DNA of 64,000 nucleotides from Paraburkholderia sp. SOS3. GTDB taxonomy: Bacteria; Pseudomonadota; Gammaproteobacteria; Burkholderiales; Burkholderiaceae. This document shows positions 9,274 to 57,126 of this stretch, one piece after another. The stretch is from positions 2,170,001 to 2,234,000 of the forward strand of contig NZ_CP018811.1 in the NCBI RefSeq assembly GCF_001922345.1, in the 5' to 3' direction. The notes under the pieces were generated by a model. The model worked only from the letters and a program-made list of their open reading frames with translations, was not told the origin of the DNA and did not search any database. Made by a program: the position numbers and the translations under genes. The stretch's first letter is position 1. Each line of letters begins with the position of its first letter.

Positions 9274-10857
9274 ATGCATGACAAGATCCTGATCCTCGAC
9301 TTCGGTTCGCAAGTCACCCAACTGATTGCCCGGCGCATCCGCGAGGCGCACGTGCTGTCGGAAATTCATCCGCACGACGTCAGCGACGCGTTTATCCGCG
9401 AGTTCAAGCCCAAGGGCGTCATCCTGTCCGGTGGCCCGAGCTCGGTGGTCGAGACCGACACGCCGCGTGCGCCGCAAGCGGTGTTCGAACTCGGCGTGCC
9501 GGTGCTCGGCATTTGCTACGGCATGCAGACGATGGCCGAGCAGCTGGGCGGCAAGGTCGACAGCGGGCACTTGCGCGAGTTCGGTTATGCGGAGGTGCGG
9601 GCGCGCAACCACACGAGCTTCCTCGAAGGCATCGAAGATTTCCGCACGCCGGAAGGCCACGGCATGCTCAAGGTATGGATGAGCCACGGCGACAAGGTGC
9701 TCGAGATGCCGGAGGGCTTCAAGCTGATGGCGTCGACGGAATCGTGCCCGATCGCCGCGATGGCCGATGAAACGCGCCATTTCTACGGGCTGCAATGGCA
9801 CCCCGAAGTCACGCATACGGTGCAGGGCCGCGCGATGCTCGAACGTTTCGTGCTGCAGATCTGCGACGCGAAGCCGGATTGGGAGATGGGCAACTATATC
9901 GACGAGGCGGTCGAGCAGATTCGTGCGCAGGTTGGTAACGAACACGTCATTCTCGGCCTGTCGGGCGGCGTCGATTCGTCGGTCGCGGCCGCGTTGCTGC
10001 ATCGTGCAATCGGCGATCAGCTGACCTGCGTGTTCGTCGATCATGGTCTGTTGCGTCTGAACGAAGCCGAACAGGTGATGGCAACCTTCGCCGATCACCT
10101 CGGCGTGAAGGTGATTCATGTCGACGCGAGCGAGGCGTTCCTGTCGAAGCTCGCCGGCGTGACCGACCCGGAGGCGAAGCGCAAGATTATCGGCGCCGAG
10201 TTCGTCGAAGTGTTCCAGACCGAAGCGTCGAAGCTGACGGACGCGAAGTGGCTTGCGCAGGGCACGATCTATCCGGACGTGATCGAGTCGGCGGGCAAGG
10301 GCAAGAAAGCGACGCAGACCATCAAGAGCCACCACAACGTAGGTGGCTTGCCCGAAACGCTGAATCTGAAACTGCTCGAGCCGCTGCGCGAGCTGTTCAA
10401 GGATGAAGTGCGCGAACTCGGCGTCAAGCTTGGCCTGCCGCCGGCGATGGTGTATCGCCATCCGTTCCCGGGGCCGGGCCTTGGCGTGCGGATCCTCGGC
10501 GAAGTCCGGCGCGAGTATGCCGATTTGCTGCGCCGCGCCGATGCGATTTTCATCGAGACGCTGCGCACGTTCATCGACAAGGAAACGGGCAAGTCGTGGT
10601 ACGACCTGACGAGCCAGGCGTTCGCGGTGTTTCTGCCGGTGAAGAGCGTCGGCGTGATGGGGGATGGGCGCACTTACGAATATGTCGTTGCGCTGCGCGC
10701 GGTGCAGACGCTCGACTTCATGACCGCGCATTGGGCGCATCTGCCGCATGATCTACTCGGCCATGTGTCGAACCGGATTATCAATGAGGTTCGCGGGATC
10801 AATCGTGTGGTGTACGACATTTCGGGTAAGCCGCCGGCGACAATCGAGTGGGAATAA
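9274..10857 (+). CDS. guaA: GMP synthase (glutamine-hydrolysing)
   Basis: Converts XMP to GMP. The 527-residue product has the N-terminal class I glutamine amidotransferase (catalytic Cys in [15 protein letters not shown], His and Glu in [10 protein letters not shown]). The ATP pyrophosphatase domain follows with its PP-loop, [15 protein letters not shown]. The C-terminal dimerisation domain ends in PPATIEWE, the conserved family terminus. The last codons form a recognised hotspot for integrase-type islands, and an integrase gene starts 222 bases downstream. The coding sequence remains intact, as expected when an element supplies or preserves the final codons. Its end sequence recurs at 50316 and, degenerately, at 57073. 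Confidence 0.98.
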
Positions 10858-10892
10858 TTTAGGATCCTCTGCAGTGGTCTGCAGAGGTCCGT
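10839..10892 (+). repeat. Candidate left attachment site (attL) at guaA 3' end
   Basis: This block comprises the last codons of guaA, a short spacer and a palindrome with 9-bp arms (CCTCTGCAG, spacer TGGT, CTGCAGAGG; 10866-10887). The same arrangement recurs at 57073-57126. There the 27 bases corresponding to 10866-10892 differ at one position, and the stop codon-to-palindrome spacing is identical. The guaA tail 10839-10853 is also repeated exactly at 50316-50330. A complete integrase gene follows. The palindrome may also act as the guaA terminator, although no T-tract follows. Confidence 0.75.
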
Positions 10893-10986
10893 CGATTCCC
10901 TGATTTCCCCCACAAGATCAAGGGTTTATCGACTATTTTGGTCTGCTGCCGTCCGTCGGCAGCGTTACGTCGCCGACGGCATGAGC

Positions 10987-11063
10987 GACGGTATAGCATC
11001 CTTCTCTGCAGACGATCCATTTTGATACCGTCACGGCGGGTGACGGTATCAAACACGGTATCA
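10987..11063 (+). repeat. Repeated ACGGTAT motifs and an inverted repeat before the integrase gene
   Basis: The integrase leader contains GACGGTAT at 10987-10994 and an inverted repeat with perfect 11-bp arms, GATACCGTCAC (11024-11034) and GTGACGGTATC (11040-11050). A further ACGGTATCA lies at 11055-11063. These could be arm-type sites for the integrase or excision factor, or an operator of the int gene. CGGTATCGT repeats occur near the inner attachment site (50242-50262). Confidence 0.6.
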
Positions 11064-11079
11064 GTTCACGGAGTATTGC

Positions 11080-12384
11080 ATGCTTACGGACCTCGAATTG
11101 CGGGCGCTCAAGCCGACCGGCAGGATATACAAGGTGGCTGACCAGCGCGGCCTGTACGTGGCGGTTACCTCGGCCGGAGCGGTGAGTTTCCGCTTCGACT
11201 ATCGTCTCAATGGGCGCCGGGAGACCCTGGTCATAGGCCGCTACGATCCCGGGCTGCCAGCACGCGGCGCACGCGCTGCCGACGAACTTACTTTTGGCAT
11301 GTCGATGCGTCTTGCAGAAGCAAGGCTACTCCTTGAGCGTGCTCGCCGGGAAGTAGAGCAGGGCGTCAGTCCATCCAGAAGGAAGGTTGAAAAGCGCGTA
11401 GAAGCGGCCGACGCGATGACGTTCGGGAAATGGGCCGAAAAATACTTCGTGGAAGCCAAGCTCGCGGAGTCGACCCGCGCGATGAGGAAGTCCGTCTATG
11501 ACCGGAACCTCGCAGCGGAGTTCGGGCGGCTGAAGCTCGAAGAGATCACACCGTCAAGGCTCCTGATGAGGTGTGAAAAGATCAAGGAGCGGGGTGCGGC
11601 CGCACCTGCCGTTCAGGCGCGCGACATCGTTCTCCAGATTTACCGTTTTGCGCAGGCAAGAGGGCTGAAGGTAGCCAATCCGGCGGACGACATCCGGCCC
11701 TCCGCAATCGCTACCTTCAAGCCGCGGGACCGGGCATTGACACCCGGGGAGATCCACGTGTTCTTCAAGGCCCTGGGGCGCACGCCTACGCTTCCTACGT
11801 TGCGTCTGGCGGTCAAGTTTATGCTCATGACAATGGTGCGCAAGTCGGAATTTATTCTGGCAACGTGGGATGAAGTGGACTTCAATGCGGCGATCTGGAC
11901 GATTCCGAAAAACCGTATGAAAGGGGGGCGTCCGCACAACATTTATCTAAGCGATCAAGCCTTGGACATTCTGGTTACTTTCAAGACGTGTTTTGGAGCA
12001 AGCTCGTACCTGCACCCTGGGAGATACGAACTAGAACTGCCTATCAGCGCGGCCACATTGAATCGCGTCATTGACAGCGCGGTCAGACTGATTCGTGAAA
12101 GTGGGACACCGGATTTCGAGTCCTTCTCGGTTCATGACTTGCGAAGAACGGCGAGCACGCAGCTGCATGAAGCCGGGTTCAACAGCGACTGGATAGAAAA
12201 ATGTCTGGCGCACGAACAACGTGGGGTGCGCGCCGTGTACAACAAGGCCGAATATGCCGAGCAGCGAAGGGGGATGCTACAGACATGGGCTGAGATGCTT
12301 GACGGGTGGATTGTGAAGGACCCTGAAATAGAGAACGGCGTAAGGCTACGACCGACCAGAAGTCCTTTGACGTCGACCGCGTAG
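11080..12384 (+). CDS. int: Site-specific tyrosine integrase (DUF4102 type)
   Basis: Inserts and excises the island by recombination at guaA. The 434-residue protein has an N-terminal DUF4102 arm-binding domain (LTDLELRALKPTGRIYKVADQRGLYVAVT, to about residue 100). A core-binding SAM-like domain follows (about 115-205), then the catalytic domain. Catalytic residues visible are Arg in TMVRKSEFILATWDEVDF, Lys in NRMKGGRPH, His-Arg in FSVHDLRRTAST, His in CLAHEQRGV and the nucleophilic Tyr in the VYNKAEYAEQRR region. The position 222 bases after guaA, reading away from it, is typical for guaA-associated islands. All catalytic motifs are present, so it could be active. A short dyad (TGATAAC-TCCG-GTTATCA, 12475-12492) lies after the gene. 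Confidence 0.95.
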   Translation: MLTDLELRALKPTGRIYKVADQRGLYVAVTSAGAVSFRFDYRLNGRRETLVIGRYDPGLPARGARAADELTFGMSMRLAEARLLLERARREVEQGVSPSRRKVEKRVEAADAMTFGKWAEKYFVEAKLAESTRAMRKSVYDRNLAAEFGRLKLEEITPSRLLMRCEKIKERGAAAPAVQARDIVLQIYRFAQARGLKVANPADDIRPSAIATFKPRDRALTPGEIHVFFKALGRTPTLPTLRLAVKFMLMTMVRKSEFILATWDEVDFNAAIWTIPKNRMKGGRPHNIYLSDQALDILVTFKTCFGASSYLHPGRYELELPISAATLNRVIDSAVRLIRESGTPDFESFSVHDLRRTASTQLHEAGFNSDWIEKCLAHEQRGVRAVYNKAEYAEQRRGMLQTWAEMLDGWIVKDPEIENGVRLRPTRSPLTSTA

Positions 12385-12618: not shown

Positions 12619-13761
12619 ATGGAAAAAAAGTATGCCGAAGGTGCGGTTGAAGCTGCCGATGGCGCCATCCAGAAAGCGGCTCCCGCAACTGTCGCGGACG
12701 ACGACGCGAAGCGCGCAGCTGCGCGCCTGAAAGCAAAGGAGAGCTTGATCGCATCGCTCGCTGGGGGCGATTTTTCTAACCAGCAGACGCGCGTCGCCCA
12801 TATCCTCAACCTGCACCCAGCCGCGCGAAACAGTGACGTGGCACTGGCCCTGAAGTATTGGGAGACGTTTCAGCCCGAACTGTACAACCCCGACGGCATC
12901 AAGCCCGCCGACTTCTTCAAGCTCGACCGCGTGCCGTTTCTCGTGCGAGCACGAGCGAAGATTCAGAACGAATACGAGTTGTTTCGGGCCGAAGACAAGG
13001 TGCGACGCCGGCGCAAGGGGCTTGAAGACGAGATGCGTGAGGCCGTGCTCACCGACGAAGCGCCACGGCAGACGCTGCAAGTTTTCTCGGATGAGACGGG
13101 GAAGGGCGATGAACACGTCATCATCGGTTCGGTGTGGGTATTGAATGGTCGCGCAGTGTATGACGTGACCAAAGCCATCAAGGACTGGCAGGCCGGCTCG
13201 AAATTCGCAAAGCGGGAATTGCACTTTTCGGCGTTCGGCAAGGGTGACATGGCGGCCGTAGTTGACTACCTCAACATAGTGGCGGCAAATCGGGAGTTCC
13301 TCAGCTTCAAGCTGATCGCAATGTCGAGGCGCAACACGCGGCGGCCCATCGAAGAAGTGGTGCAGCGTCTGCACGAGTTCATGCTAGTACGCGGGCTACG
13401 ACACGAAATCGAAAGCGGCCGCGTCGGTGTGCCACGACATGTTGCGGTCACGATGGACGAGGAGCAGTCGATCGACCGCATCGTCTTGGCGGAAATGCGC
13501 AACAGGGTAGCCGATGGCGTCGAGCGTGCTCGTCTTGATGGGATTTCGCTCGATGAGCGATTTAACGCTGTATCGTCGAAAGACAGTGCGCTCGTACAGC
13601 TTGCCGACGTCATCGCGGGTGCGGCGAACCGTCGGCTCAGTTTCAAGGGCGAGCGCAACTATAAAGACGAAATTGCGGATCGGGTGATGGACGTCTTGGG
13701 ATTGCAGTTGGAGGAGGGCGTCGCACCCGGGGTCGACGCTGCGGTGCTTTTTCGGATCTAG
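12619..13761 (+). CDS. DUF3800 domain protein
   Basis: A 380-residue protein. The C-terminal two thirds (about residues 155-375) match the DUF3800 family: the first strand with its acidic residue (LQVFSDETGKGDEHVIIGSVWV), a middle HF-containing segment (KRELHFSAFGKGDM) and the conserved end LVQLADVIAGAANRRL. DUF3800 is thought to adopt an RNase H-like fold with acidic active-site residues; the Asp-Glu pair in SDETG fits this. The first 150 residues are an alanine/lysine-rich extension that I do not recognise. The gene sits directly behind the integrase, a position often occupied by defence or toxin-like cargo. DUF3800 genes occur in phage-defence neighbourhoods, but no partner gene is evident here. 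The function is unproven. Confidence 0.8.
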   Translation: MEKKYAEGAVEAADGAIQKAAPATVADDDAKRAAARLKAKESLIASLAGGDFSNQQTRVAHILNLHPAARNSDVALALKYWETFQPELYNPDGIKPADFFKLDRVPFLVRARAKIQNEYELFRAEDKVRRRRKGLEDEMREAVLTDEAPRQTLQVFSDETGKGDEHVIIGSVWVLNGRAVYDVTKAIKDWQAGSKFAKRELHFSAFGKGDMAAVVDYLNIVAANREFLSFKLIAMSRRNTRRPIEEVVQRLHEFMLVRGLRHEIESGRVGVPRHVAVTMDEEQSIDRIVLAEMRNRVADGVERARLDGISLDERFNAVSSKDSALVQLADVIAGAANRRLSFKGERNYKDEIADRVMDVLGLQLEEGVAPGVDAAVLFRI

Positions 13762-13842
13762 CGTCGCTTGCCACCGGGCGGAACGGCTGCAAGGCATACA
13801 CCAGGCAAGGGCGTGCCGATCAGGTAGTGGCTTCCGGCCACA

Positions 13843-13869
13843 GCCTTCGGCGGCCGCCGCGCCGAAGGC
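13843..13869. terminator. Hairpin after the DUF3800 gene
   Basis: Perfect 10-bp arms, GCCTTCGGCG (13843-13852) and CGCCGAAGGC (13860-13869), enclose a 7-base loop, 82 bases after the DUF3800 stop codon. No long T-tract follows, so terminator function is only likely. The rest of the 292-base gap to the next gene holds no gene; an AT-richer part near 13915-13960 may carry the next promoter. Confidence 0.45.
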
Positions 13870-14053
13870 GGTTTGGCCCCATACCGCCGAAAGTTCACGC
13901 CTCATACGTGACGACGTAATATTGACCGTCGATAATTGACAGCGTCTATCATTACGGGACGCCCCGGTCGGCGGATTCCCTCGCGTTCGCCCCGGAAATT
14001 AAGTCTCAATTCGAGCGTCGTTCCTCGCTCCAATTCGTGGACCAGGATAACCG

Positions 14054-16852
14054 ATGTTTTCGCCCGCGCGCCCGCCAATTTTGTTCGGTCAGTTCGAGCT
14101 ACTGCCAGACGAGAGGCAGTTACTCCGCAATGGTGAGTTCATCGAGGTAGGAGGACGCGCTTTCGACGTACTGCTCCTTCTCGTCAGCAAGCCAGGACAG
14201 ATAATTTCACACAGAGAATTCCGCGAGGTCGTTTGGCCCAAAGCAGTAGTCGAGGATGTGAACCTGCGGGTGCACATTACAGCTTTAAGGAAAATCCTGG
14301 CGGTCGGCCTCGACGAATCGCACGGTATCCGCAGCATCACGGGTCGGGGCTACTGCTTCATCGGGCCTGTAAGCGCAGCCGATCGTGCCTTCACGGAACA
14401 GCCCGACGGCGAGGCGCGAGCCGCGGATGACATTGGTCGCCTCATTGGCCGGCGCAGCGATGTCGCTGCAATCTCGAAGCTGCTGCTTGACAAGCGGCTG
14501 GTATCGATAGTAGGGCCCGGGGGCGTTGGCAAGACTGCGGTAGCATTTTCTGTCATACGCTCTTTCGGTCTCGCGCGGCCGGTCACAGCAGTGAGCGTCG
14601 AACTCTCTTCGATCAGCAACACCAACCATGTAGCGAGCACGGTGGCGTCAGTGCTCGGAATCCTGGCCGATTCGGACGCTCCAACAAACGCAATCGTCGA
14701 ATACTTGCGCCAGACCCCGCATCTCTTGCTTTTCGATTGCTGCGAGCGGGTGATCGATGCTGCCGCCGCGCTGGTCGAAACGATAAATCGTCAAGTTGAC
14801 GATGTGACCATCCTTATCACAAGTCGCGAGCCTCTCCGTGTGCCCGAGGAATGGGTGTATCGGCTCAAACCTCTCGACGCACCGAGCGTGTCTGAAGGGA
14901 AGACGCCCGGGCTTGCCATGGCATTTTCAGCTGTGCGGCTCTTTTGCGAGAGAGCCACGGCATTGCAAGCGGACGCGTTCGTGCTCGACGAGGGGAACGT
15001 GGAATGCATTTGTCAACTATGCCGTTCCCTAGACGGGCTTCCGCTCGCGATCGAACTGGCTGCGTCGCAGGTTCACGTTTACAGCGCGCAAGGACTATTG
15101 GATGCGCTTGACGACCGGCTCGACCTTTTGGCGCGAGGTCACCGCACGGCTCTGCCTCGTCACAGAACGCTTCGTGCGACGCTCGATTGGAGCTATGACA
15201 CCCTAACCGAGGAGGAGCGTCGGATTCTCCGGTACGTATCGCTGTTTCGCGGCGAGTTCACCTTGGCACAGATGGCGGCGCTCGTTGAGCCGCAGGAGCC
15301 GTTACCGCGCCGTTCTGTAAGCGGTCTCGTTGACAAATCACTAATGACAGCAGTTCCGAAGACTCATCCACCGAAGTTTCGGCTGCTCGACAGCACTCGG
15401 GCGTATGGAGTCTACAGGCTGAAGCTGCTGCATGAATTCGATGAAGCCGCTCGCCGTCACGCCGCATACTTTCTCTCTCTGTTCACTGAACCCGCTGTCT
15501 GGTCAGCGCACCAGTCTTCAATCGACCCGTTGGCAAGCGATGCGTCGATTCTTGACGATGTGCGCGCAGCCCTGGACTGGTCGCTATCCAGTGAAGGTGA
15601 CGTTGCGACCGGTGTCTCGCTTACTTGGGCCTGCGCCCCTTTGTTTTACCAGCTGTCTCTTTGTAACGAATACCGTCAGAGGGTCAACAAAGCCCTCGAG
15701 CTCGTGCATCGTGCGAGAAATGCTGAACCAGAAGCCGAGTTCAGATTGCAACTTGCCCTAGCACAAGCAGACTTTCTTACGCAGTCGCTCAGAGGTGGGA
15801 TCTCGACTCGCGCATATCATGATGCTTTGTCGCTAGCGGAGGAGTATCAACACGATTCGCGCCAAGTCCAAGTTCTTTACGGGATTATCGTGATGACGAC
15901 GATGGCGGGAGAGTATCAGAGAGCCAACAATTTCTGCGATCGCCTCGACATTCTCACCCGCAAGCGCATTGCCGACGTGCCGTTGTACCATCGTATGAAG
16001 GCACTGGTCGACACTCAGCGTGGAGAAGTGAAGAGCTCCCTCCGCCATTCTGCACTTGCTCTGTCGTTGTATGGGCCGCAAAGCGCGAGGAGAACACTGC
16101 AAGACCCAACACAATACGACGCGCGCGCTGCTCTCACGTCCCTCGAGTCCCGAACCTTGTGGCTCGTGGGTCAGGTCGACGATGCCGCTCGTCTTGCACT
16201 ACAGAGCGTTGAGGAGGCGCGCGCGCTCGGACATGACTTGTCGTTGTGCTGTTCTTTGGCGTCGGGTGCGTGCCCAGTTGCATGCTGGCGTGGTGACCAC
16301 CTCGAGCTGGCGCAGTTCCTCCTGATGCTGGAGGGCTTGGCAACCGAGCGCCTGTTGATTAACTGGCGAGACCAGGCAAAATGCTACGCTTTTGCGCTTC
16401 CAGAGCGAAACTTGCCCGAAGGCCAAGGTTGGTGGCGTCATTTTGACCATTTGGCGCCGACAGCGCACGAAAAGCTCGTAAGCGTCAATCATCGATTGTT
16501 GACGCCGCTTGCGATCGAGCGTGCACGTTCCGGAAAGGCGGGTTGGGCGACGGCGGAAATATGGCGTGCGTTAGGTGAGCAGCATCTTGCTCAGTCGACG
16601 GGGTCGATAAATGAGTCTGAAGTGTTATTTCGTGAAGCCATCGCAGTATCCAAAAAGCAGGGAATGCTATCTTGGGAATTGCGGGCCGCGACCAGTCTGG
16701 CTCGTCTGCTAGATGGCAGCGGGCAGCATGCTGAGGCTGAAGACGTCGTGTCCGACATCTTGACTCGCTTCGATCAAGGTGCTGAAACTAAAGACTTGAA
16801 AGCAGCGCGCTCGGTACTTAGGCAGGTCACAGCAGACAAAAACGCTGGCTAA
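14054..16852 (+). CDS. STAND-type ATPase regulator with OmpR-like winged helix
   Basis: A large (932 aa) one-polypeptide signal-transducing regulator. Residues about 10-104 form an OmpR/CadC-type winged helix (FGQFELLPDERQLLRNGE, VVWPKAVVEDVNLRVHITAL, SITGRGYCF). An NB-ARC/STAND ATPase follows, with Walker A GPGGVGKTAV at 154-163, a Walker B-like LLLFDCCERV at 224-233, a sensor ILITSREPLRV at 253-263 and DGLPLAIELAA at 327-337. The remaining ~500 residues are helical, TPR-like repeats expected to sense a ligand. The Walker B reads FDCCE where relatives often have LDNCE. This architecture is frequent in Burkholderiales as a transcription activator. The target is unknown; the convergent MarR gene ends 6 bases away. 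It might act as a STAND defence sensor, but the DNA-binding head argues for a regulator. Confidence 0.88.
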   Translation: MFSPARPPILFGQFELLPDERQLLRNGEFIEVGGRAFDVLLLLVSKPGQIISHREFREVVWPKAVVEDVNLRVHITALRKILAVGLDESHGIRSITGRGYCFIGPVSAADRAFTEQPDGEARAADDIGRLIGRRSDVAAISKLLLDKRLVSIVGPGGVGKTAVAFSVIRSFGLARPVTAVSVELSSISNTNHVASTVASVLGILADSDAPTNAIVEYLRQTPHLLLFDCCERVIDAAAALVETINRQVDDVTILITSREPLRVPEEWVYRLKPLDAPSVSEGKTPGLAMAFSAVRLFCERATALQADAFVLDEGNVECICQLCRSLDGLPLAIELAASQVHVYSAQGLLDALDDRLDLLARGHRTALPRHRTLRATLDWSYDTLTEEERRILRYVSLFRGEFTLAQMAALVEPQEPLPRRSVSGLVDKSLMTAVPKTHPPKFRLLDSTRAYGVYRLKLLHEFDEAARRHAAYFLSLFTEPAVWSAHQSSIDPLASDASILDDVRAALDWSLSSEGDVATGVSLTWACAPLFYQLSLCNEYRQRVNKALELVHRARNAEPEAEFRLQLALAQADFLTQSLRGGISTRAYHDALSLAEEYQHDSRQVQVLYGIIVMTTMAGEYQRANNFCDRLDILTRKRIADVPLYHRMKALVDTQRGEVKSSLRHSALALSLYGPQSARRTLQDPTQYDARAALTSLESRTLWLVGQVDDAARLALQSVEEARALGHDLSLCCSLASGACPVACWRGDHLELAQFLLMLEGLATERLLINWRDQAKCYAFALPERNLPEGQGWWRHFDHLAPTAHEKLVSVNHRLLTPLAIERARSGKAGWATAEIWRALGEQHLAQSTGSINESEVLFREAIAVSKKQGMLSWELRAATSLARLLDGSGQHAEAEDVVSDILTRFDQGAETKDLKAARSVLRQVTADKNAG

Positions 16853-16857
16853 ACCTA

Positions 16858-48401: not shown

Positions 48402-48639
48402 GTCGAAGGCCCAAGGATTCTCGTCCAAACAACCGCGCCCGCTAACGCATCCGTCGCCGCGTCGCTCAAGTCTGGCCGGCTTCATTCCAGGCACATATCG
48501 GCGTTTTGTCCATCCCGCCATAGCTTTATCCAAGACCGAGTCGCCTCACCGCGCTACGCTTCAACATACAACCGGGCTGCGGAGATCGATCTTGGATCAG
48601 CTGCTTCAACACGCGTCGGACGGAATTGTCGGGACGCGA

Positions 48640-49318: not shown

Positions 49319-49345
49319 GCGATAACGCGGCTGCCTAGGCGGGCT

Positions 49346-49765
49346 GTGATCGACACCGTTTCCCGGGACCAGCGATCAAGGAATATGGCCGCTGTTTCCA
49401 ACAAGGACACTCTCCCCGAGATTTTGGTGCGGCGTGCGTTGCATCGCCTCGGGTATCGGTTCCGATTGCATCGGAGTGATTTGCCCGGAACGCCCGATAT
49501 CGTATTGCCGAAGTACAAGCTTTGTATCTTCGTCCATGGGTGTTTCTGGCATCGCCACGCGGGTTGTAAGCGGGCAAGCACGCCGTCAACCAACGTGGAA
49601 TTCTGGAAGCGGAAGTTCGAGAAGAACGTTAATAGGGATGCCGCGACGGTTGATCGTTTGACCAAGATGGGATGGCGCGTCGAGGTGATTTGGACATGTC
49701 AGACGTCGCGATCGGAAGACTTGATGAAAGTACTAAATGGATGTCTCTCAGGCACCAAACCTTGA
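49346..49765 (+). CDS. vsr: Very short patch repair endonuclease Vsr
   Basis: Nicks next to T:G mismatches that arise by deamination of 5-methylcytosine. The 139-residue product begins with GTG (VIDTVSRDQRSRNMAAV, matching the family's T-R-S-x-N-M opening). The catalytic strands are LPGTPDIVLPKYKLCIFVHGCFWHRHAGC, with the Asp, the F-H-G-C-F-W-H motif and the zinc-binding residues. A conserved FWKRKFEKNVNRDAATVDRL and GWRVEVIWTC follow. The usual partner cytosine methyltransferase is absent on both sides: decayed sequence upstream and no gene downstream. The length is typical. The tail is short but plausible. Confidence 0.93.
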   Translation: MIDTVSRDQRSRNMAAVSNKDTLPEILVRRALHRLGYRFRLHRSDLPGTPDIVLPKYKLCIFVHGCFWHRHAGCKRASTPSTNVEFWKRKFEKNVNRDAATVDRLTKMGWRVEVIWTCQTSRSEDLMKVLNGCLSGTKP

Positions 49766-50315
49766 TTATGTGTATTGGTTTGACCGTGTCTTGCGGTGGC
49801 CGGACATGAAGTCATACACTGAGCAGAAGCAAGTCATCGTGCGGTTGTGGTACCGCGAGCGTTGCGTTTCGCGACATCGCGTTCGGTTACTTCTCTGAAG
49901 GCGAGGGCTTGAGCGCGTCGCTTCTTGCGGACCGGCTCGCCGTGTTTTGCCGTTCTGCGGGGTAGATCTGTAACTGTACGTCGCCACATTGAGCAATCCC
50001 TTATGGGCTGGCCCTGTACAGCCACAATGAGAAACCCGCCTGTGATCAAACTACGTGAATTGGAGTCCTGGCGCTGGCTGGCTTTAGTCGGATTGGGTTG
50101 GAAAATGTTTGACGGAATCGATGACGGTATTGCCAACACCAATTGTCTCGAGGTACTTCCTCTTCGAGGCCGCTTTAGCAGAGTTGGTACTGAATCTCCG
50201 TTGCGGTCCGCGGAGCGGCAGTAAGTGCCGGTGGTATTTTTCGGTATCGTTGGCGGTATCGTCGCCATATGAACTAGTTGCATCCTTGTCCAGATAAGGT
50301 TGCAGCCGTTGGGTT
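49766..50315. other. Right end of the first element; repeats near the inner attachment site
   Basis: 550 bases without a recognised gene; a long minus-strand frame (to 50607) has no protein character over this stretch. Near its right end the motif CGGTATCGT occurs twice, at 50242-50250 and 50254-50262, with a GACGGTAT at 50123-50130. These resemble the ACGGTATCA motifs before the integrase gene and may be arm-type sites at the other end of the element. Confidence 0.5.
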
Positions 50316-50330
50316 GACAATCGAGTGGGA
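50316..50330 (+). repeat. Inner attachment site copy (guaA tail)
   Basis: GACAATCGAGTGGGA repeats bases 10839-10853 of guaA exactly; translated, it gives the TIEWE ending, followed by a stop (GAGTGA instead of GAATAA). It is a direct repeat, as expected for a guaA-specific element junction. It lies just upstream of an integrase remnant, mirroring the guaA-attL-int order at 10839-12384. It lacks the palindrome present at 10866 and 57100. Confidence 0.75.
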
Positions 50331-50363
50331 GTGAATTGACGTCCTTCGAGGAAACACTAACCC

Positions 50364-50468
50364 ATAGGGCGCTATGGCCCTGACGGTATCTCGCTTGCGA
50401 TGGCGCGTGAACTACTCCTGGACGCACGCAAAGCCGTTCCCAAAGGTACATCGCCCGCGCTTGAGCCG
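50364..50468 (+). pseudogene. Fragment of a second tyrosine integrase
   Basis: The frame reads IGRYGPDGISLAMARELLLD followed by ARKAVPKGTSPALE, the end of the DUF4102 arm-binding domain of integrases (compare VIGRYDP...LAEARLLLERARREVEQGVSPS in the complete one). It then leaves the family. It sits 34 bases after the inner guaA-tail copy, where an integrase gene would be expected. Only about 35 residues survive, and the catalytic domain is gone. Confidence 0.8.
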
Positions 50469-50518
50469 GCCGCGCAAGCGTGCAGCGTCGGACCGAGCTG
50501 ATGAAGTCGGGCGACACT

Positions 50519-50766: not shown

Positions 50767-51231
50767 ATGCCGGCACCCTATCTCGGTACCTGTCTGTGTG
50801 GACAGATCAGATTCGAGCTTCTCGCCGATCCGTTAACGTTTTATGTCTGTCATTGCACAGACTGTCAGCGCAGAACGGGCGGCGCAGCATTGCCTGTAAT
50901 GTGGGTTCGTCGATCTGACATCAAAGTCATTGACGGTGTGCCAGCCCTTCGGGTCTTCGATCTGGGCAATGGAAAGCAACGGCGCAGCAAGCTATGCGAG
51001 CGATGTGATACCCGATTGTGGGCAGAGCCTGCAGATAAGCCCGACATAGCCGTCCTGAGACCCGGCGTCCTGCTCAATCAGAGCGAGTTTGAGCCCGTCG
51101 CACACCTCTACGTACGGAGCAAGCAGTCGTGGTTCTCCATTCCCGAAGGTGTTGCGCAGTTCGAAACGCAACCTGGCCAGCAGGGAGAACTGCTGCGTCT
51201 ATGGCAGCAACGACACAGTCGATTGAGATGA
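50767..51231 (+). CDS. GFA family protein (glutathione-dependent formaldehyde-activating enzyme-like)
   Basis: A 154-residue zinc-binding GFA/CENP-V domain protein. Cysteine motifs are present in order: GTCLCGQIRFEL, VCHCTDCQRRTGGAALP and KLCERCDTRLW. The family was named for formaldehyde-glutathione condensation, but many members probably have other roles; here only the fold can be claimed. GGGAG precedes the ATG. The stop (51229-51231) falls in the sequence likely to be the left terminal repeat of the second IS66, so the last residues may come from the insertion. The second IS66's tnpC stop lies inside this gene in turn. Confidence 0.85.
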   Translation: MPAPYLGTCLCGQIRFELLADPLTFYVCHCTDCQRRTGGAALPVMWVRRSDIKVIDGVPALRVFDLGNGKQRRSKLCERCDTRLWAEPADKPDIAVLRPGVLLNQSEFEPVAHLYVRSKQSWFSIPEGVAQFETQPGQQGELLRLWQQRHSRLR

Positions 51232-52803
51232 CTCCCCGGCAGCGAGAGTTTGCGACCGTCGATGGACAGGCTCGCTCCAGGGCAAGAGCGCGGCGTAGTC
51301 GTCGGCCGTTTCAGCGAGCGGCAGTTTCATGAACAGCCAGGCGAGATAACGGTACGCATCGATGCCGTTCGCCTTGCAGGTCTCGACGAGCGAGTAGAGA
51401 TTTGCACTGGCCTGCGCGCCGGCGACGGTGTCCGAGAACAACCAGCCCTTGCGGCCAATGACGAATGGCCTGATCGCGTTCTCACACAGGTTGTTTGAGA
51501 TCGGCCAGCTTCCATCGTCGATGTAACGGACCAGCTTGGGCCACTGCCCACTCATGTATTGCAGAGCTCTGCCGAGCAGACTCGACGGCATGACGGTCAG
51601 CAGATGCTCAATCATCATGCGTTCGATGATGGCAAGCACGCGGGCGCTATATCGAGCACGTAGCCGCTGCCGACGTTCAGGCTTCCACTTTGTGCTGCGC
51701 GCCTCGGCGGCGAACAGCTTGCCGATCAGCACGATGAACCGCGTAGCCAGCAGGTCTCGTGTGCGAGCCGCCTTCGGCACGTTCTCTTCTGCCTTGATGA
51801 AGCCGCGACGCACATGCGCCCAGCATCCGAGATGCACAAGCTGGTGATCGTGCGCGATGCCGTTGTACAGCTCGTAACCATCGGTCATCAGCACGGTGCC
51901 GGGCTTCACGCCAGCATAGAGCCGCTGCGCGTGCTGTGCACCTCGTCCCGGAGAGTACGAGAACATCCGCACGGGCGGTCCCGAGCCGTTGACCTGCGCC
52001 CACAAATAACTCTTCGCCTGTGGTCGTCGTCCCGGTTCCTTCAGCACCTGGAAGGTCGTCTCATCTCCATGGATGAGCTCAGATTCGAGCAGCACGTCAC
52101 GCATCAGGTTGATGACCGGCTGCACAGCTTGCCCTACGCGCACCACGCTGGCAGCCAGCGTATTCGACGAGATGTCGCCACCAAAGCGACGTAACAGCGT
52201 CGCCTGCCGGTACAGTGGCATGCCGTACTGATACTTGCCGGTGATGATCCACGCCAGTGCCGATTCCGTGAGTAGCCCGCGCGGGATGATCCGTGCCGGC
52301 GCTGGCGTGACCTTGATACCCAGATCGCAGCAGGGGCATGCGTATTTGACGCGCTGATGCTGAATGACGCGTACCTGCTCGGGAACCACGTCGAGCTGCT
52401 CACTTGTCTCGATGCCGATCTCGATGAGCGCATGACCGTCGTGTGCGCAGAACCGCTCCGATTGTGGCAGCTCGTGCCGAACAACTTCGCGAGACAGGCC
52501 TGCATCAAGCGGTTTGCGACCGCGCTTACTACGGCTATGCCCTGCGACCCGTGTGGAGGGTTCGTCCTCGCGGGCCTGCACGGCTGCGCCTGACGCCAGG
52601 GACTCCGCTTCGTTGAACAGGCCGAGCTGGTCAGCATCGCGTGCTTCGCTTGATGCTCCGAACAGTTCATGCCTGTAGGCGCGTAGCCGTTCCTCCGCCA
52701 GATCCCGCTCGGCTGTGACCAATCGCAGTTCGCCACGCAACGCATCGCGCTCGGCGAGCAGCGCCTGATACTCCTCGGCACTCAGCGTGACATCGTTTGG
52801 CAT
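51199..52803 (-). CDS. tnpC: IS66 TnpC transposase (second element)
   Basis: A 534-residue IS66 transposase. The order is coiled coil (LSAEEYQALLAERDALRGEL), a cysteine-containing zinc domain (YACPCCDLGIKVTP) and the catalytic domain with Asp in LIHGDETTFQVL, Asp in VLMTDGYELYNG and Glu in NNLCENAIRPFVIGRKGWLF. Family members generally stop soon after AALLPW; here the frame runs about 25 residues on (EPVHRRSQTLAAGESSQSTV), probably beyond the element end into neighbouring sequence. The remaining protein looks intact. Confidence 0.93.
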   Translation of the reverse strand: MPNDVTLSAEEYQALLAERDALRGELRLVTAERDLAEERLRAYRHELFGASSEARDADQLGLFNEAESLASGAAVQAREDEPSTRVAGHSRSKRGRKPLDAGLSREVVRHELPQSERFCAHDGHALIEIGIETSEQLDVVPEQVRVIQHQRVKYACPCCDLGIKVTPAPARIIPRGLLTESALAWIITGKYQYGMPLYRQATLLRRFGGDISSNTLAASVVRVGQAVQPVINLMRDVLLESELIHGDETTFQVLKEPGRRPQAKSYLWAQVNGSGPPVRMFSYSPGRGAQHAQRLYAGVKPGTVLMTDGYELYNGIAHDHQLVHLGCWAHVRRGFIKAEENVPKAARTRDLLATRFIVLIGKLFAAEARSTKWKPERRQRLRARYSARVLAIIERMMIEHLLTVMPSSLLGRALQYMSGQWPKLVRYIDDGSWPISNNLCENAIRPFVIGRKGWLFSDTVAGAQASANLYSLVETCKANGIDAYRYLAWLFMKLPLAETADDYAALLPWSEPVHRRSQTLAAGESSQSTVSLLP

Positions 52804-52835
52804 GGTCTGTTAGACCGTACTGCCGCGGCGCACGT

Positions 52836-53186
52836 TCAGCTGATCCGTTCGTAATAACGTCGGGGATGCTTCTGGATAACGGCAAGGTCAATGCCGTCGA
52901 GTAACCAGTGGAGTTGCTCGACGCTGAGTGTGACCGTGTCGCTTCCATCTGGCCATATGAAGCGGTCGGCCTCGAGCCGCTTGAGGAGCAGCCAGAATCC
53001 ATTCCCGCCCCAGCCGAGAATCTTGATACGGTCACGACGCCGGTTGCCGAACACGAATAGAGCCGATGTCATTGGGTTCAGGCGCATCGCCTGTTCAACC
53101 AGGATCGACAGTCCATTGATGCCCACGCGGAAGTCGACCGGATCACGATGCAGGTAGACCTTCAGCCCTTCGTCGAACCGGAACAC
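52836..53186 (-). CDS. tnpB: IS66 TnpB (second element)
   Basis: A 116-residue IS66 Orf2: VYLHRDPVDFRVGINGLSIL, ALFVFGNRRRDRIKILGWGGNGFWLLLKRLEADRFIWPD and LSVEQLHWLLDGIDL. The start is taken as GTG 53186 (VFRFDEGLKVY), which gives a 25-base overlap with tnpA, exactly as in the first IS66. A longer upstream frame would extend through tnpA and is not needed. Confidence 0.9.
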   Translation of the reverse strand: MFRFDEGLKVYLHRDPVDFRVGINGLSILVEQAMRLNPMTSALFVFGNRRRDRIKILGWGGNGFWLLLKRLEADRFIWPDGSDTVTLSVEQLHWLLDGIDLAVIQKHPRRYYERIS

Positions 53187-53701
53187 GGCAGCCTCCCGAG
53201 CATCTGGACGATTGCCGTCAGTTCTTCGACGTTCGCTTCCCCCAGGTCGAACTCGACGCCGTTGGTCAACCGCACGTGTAACGCGACGGTCATCGACTGC
53301 GAGGATGCTCGGGGTACGCAAGGAACAGTCGGCGGTGCCGGTGCCGTAGTAACAACGGGAACAAATGCATGTCGTGCTCTTTCTGCCGATGGCTTTTGCA
53401 TCGACGCATGCGGGACCTCTACCTTAACTGGCTCGGCCATCTCAATCGTGGCTGATGATCCCGACTCCACGCGGCCCGACTGAGGCGACGATGGCGCAGC
53501 ATTGTCGCGCTGCATGAGGTACTTCGTCATCCATTTGCGCAGCAGGTTCGCATTGATCCCGTGCTCCAGGGCGAGTCGCGCCACTGATGTACCGGAACTC
53601 AACGCGGCTTCGACCAGCGCGCGCTTTGCGTTCTCGTCGTATCGGCGACGTCCATCCCGGTTCTGCCGTACTACTCTTAACTCTGAGTGATTGTCAGTCA
53701 T
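53162..53701 (-). CDS. tnpA: IS66 TnpA (second element)
   Basis: A 179-residue IS66 OrfA. The helix-turn-helix is in RRRYDENAKRALVEAALSSGTSVARLALEHGINANLLRKWMTKYL. A proline/serine-rich linker follows, then the C-terminal LHVRLTNGVEFDLGEANVEELTAIVQMLGRLPC strand region common to OrfA proteins. Its ATG abuts a perfect 28-bp palindrome. In the mRNA the likely ribosome site (AGGUGG) would lie in the paired 3' arm, suggesting translational limitation. Confidence 0.92.
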   Translation of the reverse strand: MTDNHSELRVVRQNRDGRRRYDENAKRALVEAALSSGTSVARLALEHGINANLLRKWMTKYLMQRDNAAPSSPQSGRVESGSSATIEMAEPVKVEVPHASMQKPSAERARHAFVPVVTTAPAPPTVPCVPRASSQSMTVALHVRLTNGVEFDLGEANVEELTAIVQMLGRLPCSGSTKG

Positions 53702-53729
53702 GGGTGTCCACCTATCTAGGTGGACACCC
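53702..53729. promoter_or_regulatory. Perfect palindrome abutting the tnpA start
   Basis: Arms GGGTGTCCACCTA (53702-53714) and TAGGTGGACACCC (53717-53729) surround TC and touch the tnpA ATG. It contains the TGTCCA/TGGACA core seen upstream of the other two tnpA copies. As RNA it would form a 13-bp hairpin that covers the ribosome site. Confidence 0.75.
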
Positions 53730-53868
53730 TTTTCTCATATATCGTCGGTCGCTACGAGGGTGTCATTAATTGACCGCATACCCTGTACCCGTGCCTATGG
53801 CTAACCTCTGTTGAGCAAAGCATCGGCCTCTCTGTGCGCCTAGGCGAGCCGATACACAGACCGCTCGC

Positions 53869-54303
53869 CTATCGACGCTGGTAGACAACGCCCTGAATCG
53901 AGACCTGATCCGGCTCTGGTTCCTCGTCAAAACGTTTATGCGCTTCGGCAATGGCGAGTTGGTTCCTGTTTGCCCAGTTGACCAGAGCCATGACCGGCTC
54001 CAGCAGCGTTTTTCCCATGTCCGTGAGTTCGTAGTCAACGCGCGGAGGAATGGTCGGAAACATCGTTCGCGTTATCAGTCCATCGCGCTCCAGCCCGCGC
54101 AAGGTCAACGTCAGCATCCGCTGGGAAATGCCGTCGATGCTGCGCTTCAGCTCGTTGAAGCGCCGTGGGCCATTAGCCAGCATGGCGACAATGTAGAGGC
54201 TCCACTTGTCGCCGATGCGATCCAGGATTTCACGGGTCGCCAGACAGCCGCCAGCGTCGGGTGCAGGCATATCGGCAGGTAGCTCGATGTGACCAGGTGA
54301 CAT
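53869..54303 (-). CDS. HxlR family transcriptional regulator
   Basis: A 144-residue winged-helix regulator of the HxlR type. The single conserved N-terminal cysteine is in DAGGCLATREILDRIGDKWSLYIVAMLANGPRRFNELKRSIDGISQRMLTLTLRGLERDGLITRTMF. The fold ends with VDYELTDMGKTLLEPVMALVNWA. Such regulators (for example YodB, QorR) respond to quinones, diamide or other electrophiles through that cysteine. The start is ATG 54303 with a GAAGG site. It is divergent from an azoreductase operon, its expected target, with dyads between. Confidence 0.93.
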   Translation of the reverse strand: MSPGHIELPADMPAPDAGGCLATREILDRIGDKWSLYIVAMLANGPRRFNELKRSIDGISQRMLTLTLRGLERDGLITRTMFPTIPPRVDYELTDMGKTLLEPVMALVNWANRNQLAIAEAHKRFDEEPEPDQVSIQGVVYQRR

Positions 54304-54349
54304 GCGTGTGCCTTCTTGTGGGGAATCGGCAGGAACCATACCATCCTTC

Positions 54350-54400
54350 GTATAAATCGGTAAGTCAGAATCAATATTTTACTTAGTTCTCATTTTATAC
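54350..54400. promoter_or_regulatory. HxlR/azoreductase divergent promoter with inverted repeat
   Basis: GTATAAA (54350-54356) and TTTATAC (54394-54400) form an inverted repeat around an AT-rich core that also contains GTAAGT and ACTTAG. It sits in the 109 bases between the two start codons. It is a candidate HxlR operator; the AT-rich arms also look like -10 elements facing each way. Confidence 0.5.
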
Positions 54401-54412
54401 CTAGGAGCCGTC

Positions 54413-55030
54413 ATGAGCCACACCCTCCTTGTCACTGCCAGCCCGCGCGGGACTGACAGCCTTTCCACCCGTTTTGCCACCGAAATCGCCGATGGCATCG
54501 TGGCCCGCTCGGGCGGCCCGCTGACCGTGCGCGACCTCGCCGCGAATCCGCCGCCGCACATCACATCCGCCTACATCCAAGGCCGGATCACGTCGCCCGA
54601 AGATCGCACATCGGAACAGAGCGAGGCGGTGAAGGTCGCGCAAGAGTTGGTCGATGAGTTAAAGGTCGCCAATGTGATCGTGCTCGGTTCGGGCATGATC
54701 AACTTCGGCCTGCCCTCACAGCTCAAGGCGTGGTTCGATCACGTCACCTGGCCACGCGTCACTTTCGGCTATGGCGACACCGGTCCGACAGGGTTGCTGA
54801 CCGGCAAGAAGGTCTATCTCGTGACCGCCGCGGGAGGTGTGTTCTCGGAAGGCGCCTGGGCATCGTTCGACTTTCAGACCAACTATCTGCTGCACCTGCT
54901 TGGTTTCATCGGCCTGACCGACGTTGAAGTGGTGCGTGTCGAAGGTACTGTTTTAGGCACCGATGCGGTGAAGGCCGCCATCGCCAACGCCGAAACGGCC
55001 ATCAAAGCCTTGCTGGCGGAGGCTGCGTGA
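54413..55030 (+). CDS. azoR: FMN-dependent NADH-azoreductase
   Basis: A 205-residue flavodoxin-fold quinone/azo reductase. Family motifs: [22 protein letters not shown], then [53 protein letters not shown], close to the P-M-x-N-F-G-x-P-x-x-L-K-x-W-x-D and G-P-x-G-L pattern of AzoR. It reduces quinones, azo dyes and nitroaromatics with NADH. First gene of an operon with two reductases, divergent from HxlR; this pairing is typical for electrophile defence. Confidence 0.94.
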
Positions 55031-55034
55031 CCTC

Positions 55035-55688
55035 ATGGCCGGGGAAAAAACCATCGCGCTGTTCGGTGCGACCGGGCCGACCGGAACGCACATCATCGAG
55101 GAAGCTTTGAAGCAGGGCTACAACCTGTCGGTCTATACGCGCGACGCAAGGAAACTCGAGTCGTTCGCGGGAAAGGTAGAGATCGTTGTCGGCAACCTGC
55201 AAGACCAGAGTGCCATTGCGAAGTGCGTCCAAGGTGCCGATGCAGTCATTAGCGCCCTTGGTCCCAACAGTCTCAAGGCGCAGGGCGATAAGCCTATCAT
55301 GCACGGCTTGACCAACATCATCGCCGCGATGAAGCACGCAGGCGTGCGCCGTCTTATCCAGATTTCTACGGCTGCCTATCGCGATCCCAAGGATGGCTTT
55401 GCGTTCAAACCCCATGCGTTCGCGCTGTTGTTCAAGGTTATCGCGCGCAAGGGATATGAGGACATCAAGGCGACTGGCGAATTGGTCGCCAATTCCGACT
55501 TGGACTGGACACTGGTACGCATTCCGAACCTGAAGGATGGCCCTGCCTATGGCGATGTGGATGTCGGTTGGTATGGAAAGGCCAAACTCAGCATGAAGCT
55601 CTCCAGAGGCAATCTTGCGAAGTTCCTGGTTGACCAGATGACCGACAGGAAGTTCGTGCGTGCCGCACCAGGCATCGCTAATCATTGA
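55035..55688 (+). CDS. NAD(P)H-binding reductase (atypical SDR/NmrA-like)
   Basis: A 217-residue protein with a Rossmann opening IALFGATGPTGTHIIEEALKQGYNLSVYTRD and later DAVISALGPNSLKAQGDKP. Atypical SDRs of the NAD(P)-binding family with this pattern act as flavin reductases or quinone-sensing redox proteins. It starts 4 bases after azoR and probably is translated with it. No active-site triad of classical SDRs is visible, as expected. The substrate is unknown. Confidence 0.88.
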   Translation: MAGEKTIALFGATGPTGTHIIEEALKQGYNLSVYTRDARKLESFAGKVEIVVGNLQDQSAIAKCVQGADAVISALGPNSLKAQGDKPIMHGLTNIIAAMKHAGVRRLIQISTAAYRDPKDGFAFKPHAFALLFKVIARKGYEDIKATGELVANSDLDWTLVRIPNLKDGPAYGDVDVGWYGKAKLSMKLSRGNLAKFLVDQMTDRKFVRAAPGIANH

Positions 55689-55717
55689 CGCAGGAACGTC
55701 TCGACAAGGTTTACGCC

Positions 55718-56629
55718 ATGAGCGGATTCACTAATGCCGATGTACCCGATCAATCGGGAAAGACCTTTATCGTCACCGGCGCCAATACCGGCATAGGCTT
55801 TGAAATAGCGAGTGCGCTGGCGGCGCGGCGAGGCAGGGTGCTTATCGGGTGCCGCGATGAGGCAAAAGCGGAAGCTGCTATTAGCCGGATTCGTCTGAAG
55901 ACCCTTGAAGCGAATCTCGCATTCCTGCCGCTTGACCTCGCAGACCTGGCGAGCGTGCGCAACGCAGCAAAACTGGCCGAAAAGGAAGCGCGCATCGACG
56001 CGCTCATCAATAATGCGGGCGTGCAAGGGCCGAAGTTAAAGCACACGGCACAAGGCTTCGAACTGACGTTCGGCGTCAATCATCTTGGTAGCTTTGCGCT
56101 CACTGCGCTCATGTTGCCCAAGCTCACGGAAACATCCGGGTCGCGCATCGTTGTCACGAGCAGCGGTCTGCACAAGGACGCGAAGATCGAGTGGGACGAT
56201 CTTAATGCGGAGAAGAGCTACAAATGGATGCCTCGCTATGCAGCCAGCAAGCTCGCGAATCTGCTTTTTATCTTTGAGTTGGATAGGCGACTGCGAGCGG
56301 CGGGCACACCTGTTACGGCGGTAGCCTGCCATCCGGGTCTTGCTGGAACCAGCCTTGCGCGCGATAGCTGGTGGGGCAACATCGCCATGTCATTGATCGG
56401 CCTGTGTTTCAACACGCCGGCTCAGGGCGCGTGGGGTGCATTGCAAGCGGCGACCGGACAAATAAAGTCCGGCGGCTATTACGGACCGACGAAAATTTCC
56501 GGATTGCGAGGCCCCTCTGGCGAATGCACTCCGTCTCAGGACGCGCGAAATCCGGAACTCGCAAGACGACTGTGGGATGTATCGGTTCAACTGACCGGAA
56601 TCGATGCCGAACTACCTTCAAATTCATAG
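55718..56629 (+). CDS. SDR family oxidoreductase (retinol dehydrogenase-like)
   Basis: A 303-residue classical SDR: KTFIVTGANTGIGFEIASALAARRG, DALINNAGVQGPKL, catalytic Ser in IVVTSSGLHKDAKIEW and Tyr-Lys in MPRYAASKLANLLF. The long insert after the Ser is usual for retinol dehydrogenase-type members. The start is placed at ATG 55718; a TTG at 55685, overlapping the previous stop codon, would be the operon-coupled alternative. Third gene of the azoR operon. Confidence 0.9.
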   Translation: MSGFTNADVPDQSGKTFIVTGANTGIGFEIASALAARRGRVLIGCRDEAKAEAAISRIRLKTLEANLAFLPLDLADLASVRNAAKLAEKEARIDALINNAGVQGPKLKHTAQGFELTFGVNHLGSFALTALMLPKLTETSGSRIVVTSSGLHKDAKIEWDDLNAEKSYKWMPRYAASKLANLLFIFELDRRLRAAGTPVTAVACHPGLAGTSLARDSWWGNIAMSLIGLCFNTPAQGAWGALQAATGQIKSGGYYGPTKISGLRGPSGECTPSQDARNPELARRLWDVSVQLTGIDAELPSNS

Positions 56630-57072
56630 CGCGACGATCAGATTGCGAGAGGATGGTTATGTACTGAAATCATGAAATCACATGTCTGTGGTGCATCGGC
56701 GGACATCACCATCTCGACAAAGTGCTGGCGGAGCGTTTCCAATGGCGGACGCAGCGAAGACGAGATTGCTTCGGCAATACAAGCGGCTTCCCGCACCATC
56801 TCTCGTCGACGCGGTTTCCTTCATTCCCGTGATGTAGGAATTCGGCGGGTACCAAGTCGATAAGATAACGTGGGGCCTGTCGGACGGCATCGACGTCAAG
56901 CAGCTGAACTGCGGTAGCCAGTCCGGTATGATCGAAGCTGATTGATGATGAGCCGATGCCGCGCAAACCCGCGCCAGCAAAAGGGCGTGTTTTTCTAACG
57001 GTAAAAGCGACGGTAAAGGCTTTTTCCGATCACAACCAAACCCTTTATCCACGCGGGTCTGGGCGATCCGTT
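56630..57072. other. Right end of the second element; no gene recognised
   Basis: About 440 bases with only short frames. ACGGTAAA occurs twice (56998-57005 and 57010-57017), close to the right attachment site, similar in kind to the ACGGTAT repeats at 10987-11063. These may be arm-type sites. The sequence otherwise lacks motifs. Confidence 0.5.
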
Positions 57073-57126
57073 GATGATCGGGTGGGCGTAATTCAGAAAC
57101 CTCTGCGGTGGTCTGCAGAGGTCCGT
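57073..57126 (+). repeat. Candidate right attachment site (attR)
   Basis: The block repeats 10839-10892. The part equivalent to the guaA tail is degenerate but keeps the TGG...TAA pattern and the distance from stop codon to palindrome. The palindrome region (57100-57126) differs from the left copy at only one of 27 positions. It lies 13 bases before the stop of the convergent cupin gene, whose reading frame is whole. It marks the right boundary of the island. Confidence 0.75.

What the first reader, a model, noticed from the sequence alone, without database searches (positions are those of the whole stretch)
10839..57126. A 46-kb island at guaA with three attachment-site copies implies tandem accretion of two elements
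The guaA tail plus palindrome at 10839-10892 recurs at 57073-57126: 26 of 27 bases match in the palindrome part, and the spacing to the stop codon is identical. A third exact 15-bp copy of the guaA tail is at 50316-50330. A complete integrase follows the first copy, and an integrase fragment follows the inner copy. This gives guaA-att-int-cargo (10.8-50.3 kb) and att-(int)-cargo (50.3-57.1 kb). guaA is an established integration site; the two-element reading is inferred.
Basis: partly seen in the sequence, partly recalled or inferred. Interest (0 to 1): 0.8.

Follow-up and report, generated by a model that had tools for sequence, protein, structure and literature searches.

The report
Three-element island array beside guaA
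Mobile DNA elements that target the end of the guaA gene have stacked up head to tail in this bacterium, and the inserted stretch looks about twice as long as first thought because the supposed right-hand edge is the start of a third, broken element.

Summary
The repeats are real: 10,839 and 57,073 match 45/54 (26/27 in the palindrome block); 50,316 is an exact 15-mer. (1) The core is the published guaA-island core GAGTGGGA; the palindrome is an element-borne hairpin of the integrase-side (left) end. (2) The 57,073 copy is therefore not the outer attR: it joins a right end (26/32 and 24/32 to two relatives' right ends) to the left end of a third element that has lost its integrase. (3) The inner element (50.3-57.1 kb) starts with the left end of another guaA-integrase family; its integrase is a 38-codon stub. 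(4) The chromosome does not resume at 57,126: of 17 guaA-downstream stretches from relatives, 7 reach DNA homologous to 106-112 kb and none the cupin block, so the insertion is ~95 kb. The extra ~48.7 kb holds blocks found on secondary replicons in relatives. Of 80 other genomes with a cupin homologue, none shows it near guaA. Only element 1 looks excisable (39.5 kb). Closest known: GIsul2, ICERspD18B. New member of a known kind.

The parts
9274..10857 (+). guaA (GMP synthase), host gene whose 3' end is the integration site
   Evidence: ORF; found in 143 of 144 same-genus genomes, own included
10846..10857 (+). Junction J1: guaA | core GAGTGGGAATAA
   Evidence: core GAGTGGGA as in passages of PMC9376610 and PMC7775301
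10866..10887 (+). Left-end hairpin of element 1 (CCTCTGCAGTGGTCTGCAGAGG), element-borne
11080..12384 (+). Complete P4-type tyrosine integrase of element 1
   Evidence: such an integrase starts 223-344 bp after the last guaA codon in 22 of 144 genomes, own included
12619..49765 (.). Cargo of element 1: DUF3800, Trans_reg_C/NB-ARC-like regulator, MarR, LysR, porin, monocarboxylate-permease-like, M20 peptidase, TetR, Blh-type phosphatase and MBL fold, alpha/beta hydrolases, AraC, catalase, SDRs, DUF302, IS66 set, RND efflux trio with TetR, Vsr endonuclease
50313..50322 (+). Right end of element 1 (GTTGACAATC, before the core)
   Evidence: Exact match to the right-end motif found at 27 places in 25 of 144 genomes; the 32 bp further left are not above chance (19/32 at best)
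50323..50334 (+). Junction J2: core GAGTGGGAGTGA
50335..50352 (+). Left end of element 2, family B (ATTGACGTCCTTCGAGGA)
   Evidence: 50,316-50,352 is 94.6% identical to the guaA-element junction of G048; same left end after guaA in G080, G128, G033, G039
50350..50477 (+). Integrase stub of element 2 (family B); leader, start and most of the gene missing
   Evidence: 115 bp at 81.7% and 38 aa at 68% to the G048 copy; about 244 bp absent between left end and stub
50767..56629 (.). Cargo of element 2: GFA-family protein, IS66 set, HxlR regulator, flavodoxin-like and NmrA/NAD-binding proteins, SDR
57038..57079 (+). Right end of element 2 (32-bp arm plus GTTGATGATC)
   Evidence: Arm 26/32 to G062 and 24/32 to G080, the best site in 124 kb for both (next 19 and 20); 20/32 to G033 and G039, not above chance
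57080..57091 (+). Junction J3: degenerate core GGGTGGGCGTAA (2 of the 8 core bases changed)
57092..57126 (+). Left end of element 3 (family A hairpin at 57,100-57,121), integrase absent
57137..64000 (.). Start of the block abutting element 3's left end: cupin, aldehyde dehydrogenase, tartrate-dehydrogenase-type, class-III aminotransferase; continues past the window to about 105.8 kb
   Evidence: Contiguous with G121:C3 and G038:C11 at about 86-88% to ~90 kb; G121:C3 corresponds to NZ_CP155075.1, Paraburkholderia sp. PREW-6R

Best explanation
The region is a tandem array of guaA-specific integrative elements on the largest contig (C1) of a genome that is most likely Paraburkholderia. Each element recombines at the 8-bp core GAGTGGGA in the last codons of guaA; an incoming element inserts at the guaA-core junction and pushes earlier ones outward. 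Element 1 (10.85-50.33 kb, family A) has an intact integrase and an intact core at both ends. Element 2 (50.33-57.08 kb, family B left end) keeps both ends but only a stub of its integrase. Element 3 is shown only by its family-A left end at 57.09-57.13 kb; its integrase is gone and it abuts a block typical of secondary replicons. The insertion relative to close relatives runs to ~105.8 kb. Shown by sequence: junction anatomy, family assignment of the left ends, distal synteny. Inferred: order of arrival, excision of element 1 as a 39.5-kb circle by J1 x J2 recombination, and whether the 57.1-105.8 kb block came as cargo of element 3 or later.
For: Repeats verified. Integrase right after guaA in 22 of 144 genomes. 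Hairpin at 20 places in 18 of 144 genomes: tblastn finds an integrase or fragment in 14 of the 20 stretches, remnants were seen by eye in 3 more (G051, G071, G113), none in 3 (G076, G129, J3 itself). Right-end motif at 27 places in 25 of 144 genomes; 14 of the 27 share a contig with guaA and all 14 lie downstream on guaA's strand, 9-108 kb away; by eye 14 of 27 run straight into another left end and 13 do not. J2 carries the family B left end and integrase stub. J3's left half matches the right ends of G062 and G080; G080 has the family B left end after guaA and this right end 9.9 kb on. G078 has the family A left end, and a right end 86.9 kb away beside an intrinsic-terminator-like hairpin (by eye). 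G068 has two full family A integrases 32 kb apart. Distal synteny near 106 kb in G029, G075, G048.
Against: No right end near 105.8 kb (best 13/22; shuffled mean 12.9), so the outer attR is missing. J3's core has 2 of 8 bases changed. Element 3 rests on a 35-bp left end, and two other hairpin places (G076 after guaA, G129 elsewhere) also show no integrase remnant. With the search motif left out, J2's right-end arm is not above chance and J3's arm fails for 2 of 4 comparisons. No other strain of the species was available.
Confidence: 0.82

Rival explanations
1. One reading: one island of two elements ending at 57,126, with the 57,073 copy as attR and the cupin gene as the first native gene.
For: Hairpin and stop spacing agree between the two ends; GC is higher at 58-60 and 62-64 kb (0.65) than in the island, though 0.59 at 60-62 kb.
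Against: The hairpin travels with the integrase, also away from guaA (G070:C2); guaA-distal DNA of G029, G075 and G048 maps near 106 kb; cupin near guaA in 0 of 80 other genomes that have it; the cupin block is on secondary replicons in relatives.
Confidence: 0.07
2. Sub-question, origin of the 57.1-105.8 kb block: element 3 brought it as cargo. A guaA element on a secondary replicon captured the genes, integrated at guaA on C1, then lost its integrase and right end.
For: The block starts about 11 bp after the left end; family A elements occur on other replicons: G070:C2 and plasmid pSYMBR3459 of P. phenoliruptrix.
Against: No integrase homologue or element end in the fetched G121:C3 (80 kb) and G038:C11 (40 kb) stretches; the block is a mosaic, 57.1-90.6 kb as in G121/G038 and 101.7-105.75 kb as in G029:C2; no right end at 105.8 kb.
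Confidence: 0.25
3. Sub-question, origin of the block: element 3 is only a scar, and the block was put next to it by later inter-replicon rearrangement or accretion of unrelated segments, deleting the integrase and the outer attR.
For: Abrupt junctions without att at 57.13 and 105.8 kb; mosaic composition; part of the DNA right of the molybdopterin-dehydrogenase operon in G029:C2 is still collinear on the own C2 (87% over 4.8 kb).
Against: The block begins right at an element end, which would be coincidence; no transposase among the 24 ORFs scanned beyond 57.1 kb (not all ORFs were scanned).
Confidence: 0.5

Closest known systems
GIsul2 (guaA island with attL, attLR and attR; PMC9376610, 12 of 30 passages shown)
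   Same: guaA 3' end, integrase, core GAGTGGGA, three att sites allowing more than one excision product
   Different: There excision of the whole island and of the attLR-attR unit was detected by PCR; here the left ends are of two integrase families, the third junction has a degenerate core and the outer attR is missing; excision untested
ICERspD18B (guaA ICE of Rheinheimera; PMC7775301, 11 passages shown)
   Same: Direct repeat ACAATNGAGTGGGAATNNTT fits J1 exactly; P4-type integrase at guaA
   Different: It has type IV secretion and relaxase genes and transfers; none was found in the ORFs scanned here
Composite / tandem-accretion islands (e.g. CGI48 in Shewanella, PMC8978831; listing and start of abstract only)
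   Same: Several elements combined at one locus
   Different: Other integration site; here the junctions seen are guaA-type

Membership tests
guaA-specific P4-type integrase islands | Insertion at the 3' end of guaA with the core GAGTGGGA | tested here: met
   J1 and J2 carry GAGTGGGA exactly; core per passages
guaA-specific P4-type integrase islands | Same core at every element boundary | tested here: not met
   J3 reads GGGTGGGC, and no right end was found near 105.8 kb
guaA-specific P4-type integrase islands | Integrase gene next to the left end | tested here: met
   Met for element 1; only a stub for element 2; absent for element 3
guaA-specific P4-type integrase islands | AlpA-type regulator near the integrase (passage) | tested here: inconclusive
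   None in 56 ORFs of 10.8-57.1 kb scanned; ORFs under 90 aa, and some larger ones, were not scanned
guaA-specific P4-type integrase islands | Relatives without an element after guaA | tested here: met
   G029 and G075: within about 1.1 and 0.7 kb of the guaA stop the sequence joins DNA shared with the own chromosome near 106 kb
Tandem accretion array | Inner junctions joining the right end of one element to the left end of another | tested here: met
   J2 by motif and left end, J3 by right-end arm and left end
Tandem accretion array | Outer attR joined to native chromosome | tested here: not met
Integrative and conjugative element | Relaxase and type IV secretion genes | tested here: not met
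   No such Pfam domain in the 56 ORFs of 10.8-57.1 kb scanned
Any mobile element | Excision as a circle | not testable with these tools
   No reads or bench data

The most novel reading that the evidence does not exclude
guaA element arrays act as a docking platform that moves secondary-replicon DNA to the main chromosome: family A elements that sit on secondary replicons capture neighbouring catabolic operons and deliver them beside guaA, here ~49 kb of them behind element 3.
Probability: 0.2. Interest if true: 0.6.

Novelty: new member of a known kind. Interest (0 to 1): 0.4.

Why it matters
It shows how a repeat pair can mislead: the apparent outer repeat is an internal element start, and the insertion is about twice as long. 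It also gives a three-junction example of mixed-family stacking at guaA in (most likely) Paraburkholderia, and a testable case of secondary-replicon-type genes lying on the main chromosome next to an integration hotspot.

Tried and rejected
Palindrome as the attachment core: rejected, since it travels with the integrase and differs between integrase families while GAGTGGGA is shared. Palindrome as native guaA terminator: rejected as the main reading; relatives without the element have other sequence after guaA, some with intrinsic-terminator-like hairpins (by eye). A further att copy at 56,182 (13/15, with the 8-bp core exact): it lies inside the SDR reading frame without a following left end and is taken as chance. 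An outer attR near 105.8 kb: looked for, not found. Right-end arm of element 1: dropped as evidence after one search showed that without the search motif it is no better than chance; the G033 and G039 matches to J3 were dropped likewise. The confidence was lowered from 0.85 to 0.82 for this. Origin of the block by its flanks: the left flank of the G038 copy has five weak scattered matches (68-75%) in the own genome; part of the right side of the G029 operon is on own C2. Block versus core identity: 86.0 vs 82.6% (G121) and 88.5 vs 83.9% (G038) with one 10-kb core stretch as yardstick (one search had used unlike filters): a small excess, not decisive. Defence role: among 10 proteins PADLOC gave Vsr and a PDC-M04A match (E 2.5e-7) for the DUF3800 protein. 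Hairpin covariation: the pattern fixes the inner seven pairs, so only the outer ones inform; G071 and G102 keep pairs through two-sided changes, while 6 of 20 (G041, G076, G077, G095, G098, G099) break one or two of them. The 11.1-36.0 kb stretch against plasmids: 7 records, at most 5% covered.
Full report
Observation. The repeats are present as stated: 45/54 identity between 10,839 and 57,073, 26/27 in the palindrome block but 19/27 in the block before it, and an exact 15-mer at 50,316. The next best independent place for the 27-mer is 18/27. In the own genome (7.5 Mb, 3 contigs; window = C1:2,170,001-2,234,000) the palindrome occurs twice, at these places, with up to 3 mismatches. The integrase at 11,080-12,384 is complete.

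Core and palindrome. Published guaA islands share the core GAGTGGGA, and ICERspD18B has the repeat ACAATNGAGTGGGAATNNTT (passages of PMC9376610 and PMC7775301). J1 fits the latter exactly, J2 has the core intact, J3 has GGGTGGGC. The palindrome is something else. A pattern for its inner 18 bases, searched in 144 same-genus genomes (own included), gave 20 places in 18 genomes; 14 of the 20 follow guaA. tblastn with the integrase matches 14 of the 20 stretches: ten nearly full length and four fragments (G041, G045, G077, G095). Three more (G051, G071, G113) show leader or C-terminal remnants by eye. Three show none: G076, G129 and the window's J3. It also occurs with a full integrase away from guaA in G070:C2. 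It is thus a left-end feature of one element family, called A here. It folds as a hairpin. Lying just after the guaA stop, it may stand in for the guaA terminator (inference; no T run follows).

guaA as a site in this genus. An integrase match at E up to 1e-100 starts 223-344 bp after the last guaA codon in 22 of 144 genomes; the other 8 of 30 integrase matches lie elsewhere, among them second copies 31.9 kb after guaA in G068 and, in G139, a copy 10.3 kb after guaA. The right-end motif GTTGACRATYGAGTGGGARTRA (one mismatch allowed) gave 27 places in 25 of 144 genomes, the window's J2 among them. Fourteen share a contig with guaA, and all 14 lie downstream on the same strand, 9-108 kb away. By eye 14 of 27 are directly followed by a further left end (G033 and G088 less clearly) and 13 are not.

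The three junctions. J1: guaA, core, family A left end, intact integrase. J2: exact right-end motif GTTGACAATC, core, then the left end ATTGACGTCCTTCGAGGA as after guaA in G048, G080, G128, G033 and G039, then an integrase stub after a gap of about 244 bp relative to G048. The integrases of G033 and G039 are 54% identical to that of element 1, hence a second family, B. J3: GTTGATGATC with a 32-bp arm that matches the right ends of G062 (26/32) and G080 (24/32) better than any other place in 124 kb (next 19 and 20), then a degenerate core, then a family A left end without integrase. Against this: G033 and G039 match J3's arm at 20/32, as well as a second place does, and the arm left of J2 matches nine other right ends at only 8-19 of 32, no better than elsewhere. 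The 42-base scores include the 10 bases used to find the sites and look stronger for that reason. G080 has the family B left end after guaA and this right end 9.9 kb further, which is the best parallel for element 2.

The right edge. With the next 60 kb of the same contig added (numbering continued), 17 stretches downstream of guaA from relatives were compared, 12-78 kb each. G029, G075 and G048 align from about 106.0 kb, G084 from 107.7 kb, and G021, G116 and G121 from about 111.9 kb; the other ten do not reach it within the stretch. None continues from guaA into the 57.1-105.8 kb block; only short matches of 67-72% to it were seen, in G029, G075 and G068. Short similarity begins near 105,797 (by eye). 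G048 is not an empty site: it carries a family B remnant. The insertion relative to G029 and G075 is about 95 kb. From 57,137 to about 90.5 kb it matches contiguous blocks on G121:C3 (86.0%) and G038:C11 (88.5%), against 82.6% and 83.9% for the stretch upstream of guaA. 12 plasmid-collection records hold at least 80% of 57,140-64,000. Host 101.7-105.75 kb, with molybdopterin-dehydrogenase-type genes, matches G029:C2. The segment is a mosaic of secondary-replicon-type DNA. No right end was found at 105.8 kb: best 13/22, shuffled mean 12.9.

Of 80 other genomes with a cupin homologue (E up to 1e-20), none shows it near guaA and only G098 has both on one contig, 5.2 Mb apart (compared by eye). 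Many are drafts, so adjacency across contig ends cannot be excluded there.

How it works. By analogy with GIsul2 the integrase of element 1 should recombine J1 with J2 and release a 39.5-kb circle; J1 x J3 is less likely given the changed core. Elements 2 and 3 would need an integrase from elsewhere. No relaxase or type IV secretion domain was found in 56 ORFs of 10.8-57.1 kb scanned, so transfer would need help. Excision and transfer are not shown here.

Literature. Searches: guaA with genomic island, integrase and GMP synthase (18 papers); with Burkholderia, island and integration site (3); with GAGTGGGA (5); with Paraburkholderia and genomic island (3); guaA, tandem, integrase, attR, GIsul2 (26 with at least 4 of 5 terms, 10 listed); tandem accretion terms (31, 10 listed). 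No listed title or abstract start describes a guaA array in Paraburkholderia. Song et al. 2012 is known to me here only through passages. I saw passages of two papers and no whole paper.

Noticed in passing
window 38185-40560 and 51199-53701: Two IS66-type sets, one in element 1 and one in element 2.
   Followed up: no
window 31279-32334 and 48385-49338: Two ORFs resemble the Blh sulfur transferase/dioxygenase model, the second only over part of it and below the cut-off, perhaps a decayed copy.
   Followed up: no
L101, L088, L085 (G068, G070, G045): Another kind of right end, TAATGGACG..ACTGGAATATG.TGGAGTGGGAGTAA, precedes family A left ends; one frame ends in LEWE-stop, like the guaA tail IEWE-stop (by eye).
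   Followed up: partly
L162 (pSYMBR3459 of P. phenoliruptrix BR3459a): A family A integrase (87%) on this plasmid lies next to mobC and a large LPD7-domain gene.
   Followed up: partly
G105:C1:2954877-2956454: A second guaA-like gene, 81% identical, in one relative.
   Followed up: no
64.8-66.4 kb and 82.4-84.0 kb, window numbering continued past 64,000 (L063): Two stretches of the 57-90 kb block match each other's counterparts at about 80%; the first holds a solute-binding-protein gene, suggesting an internal duplication.
   Followed up: no
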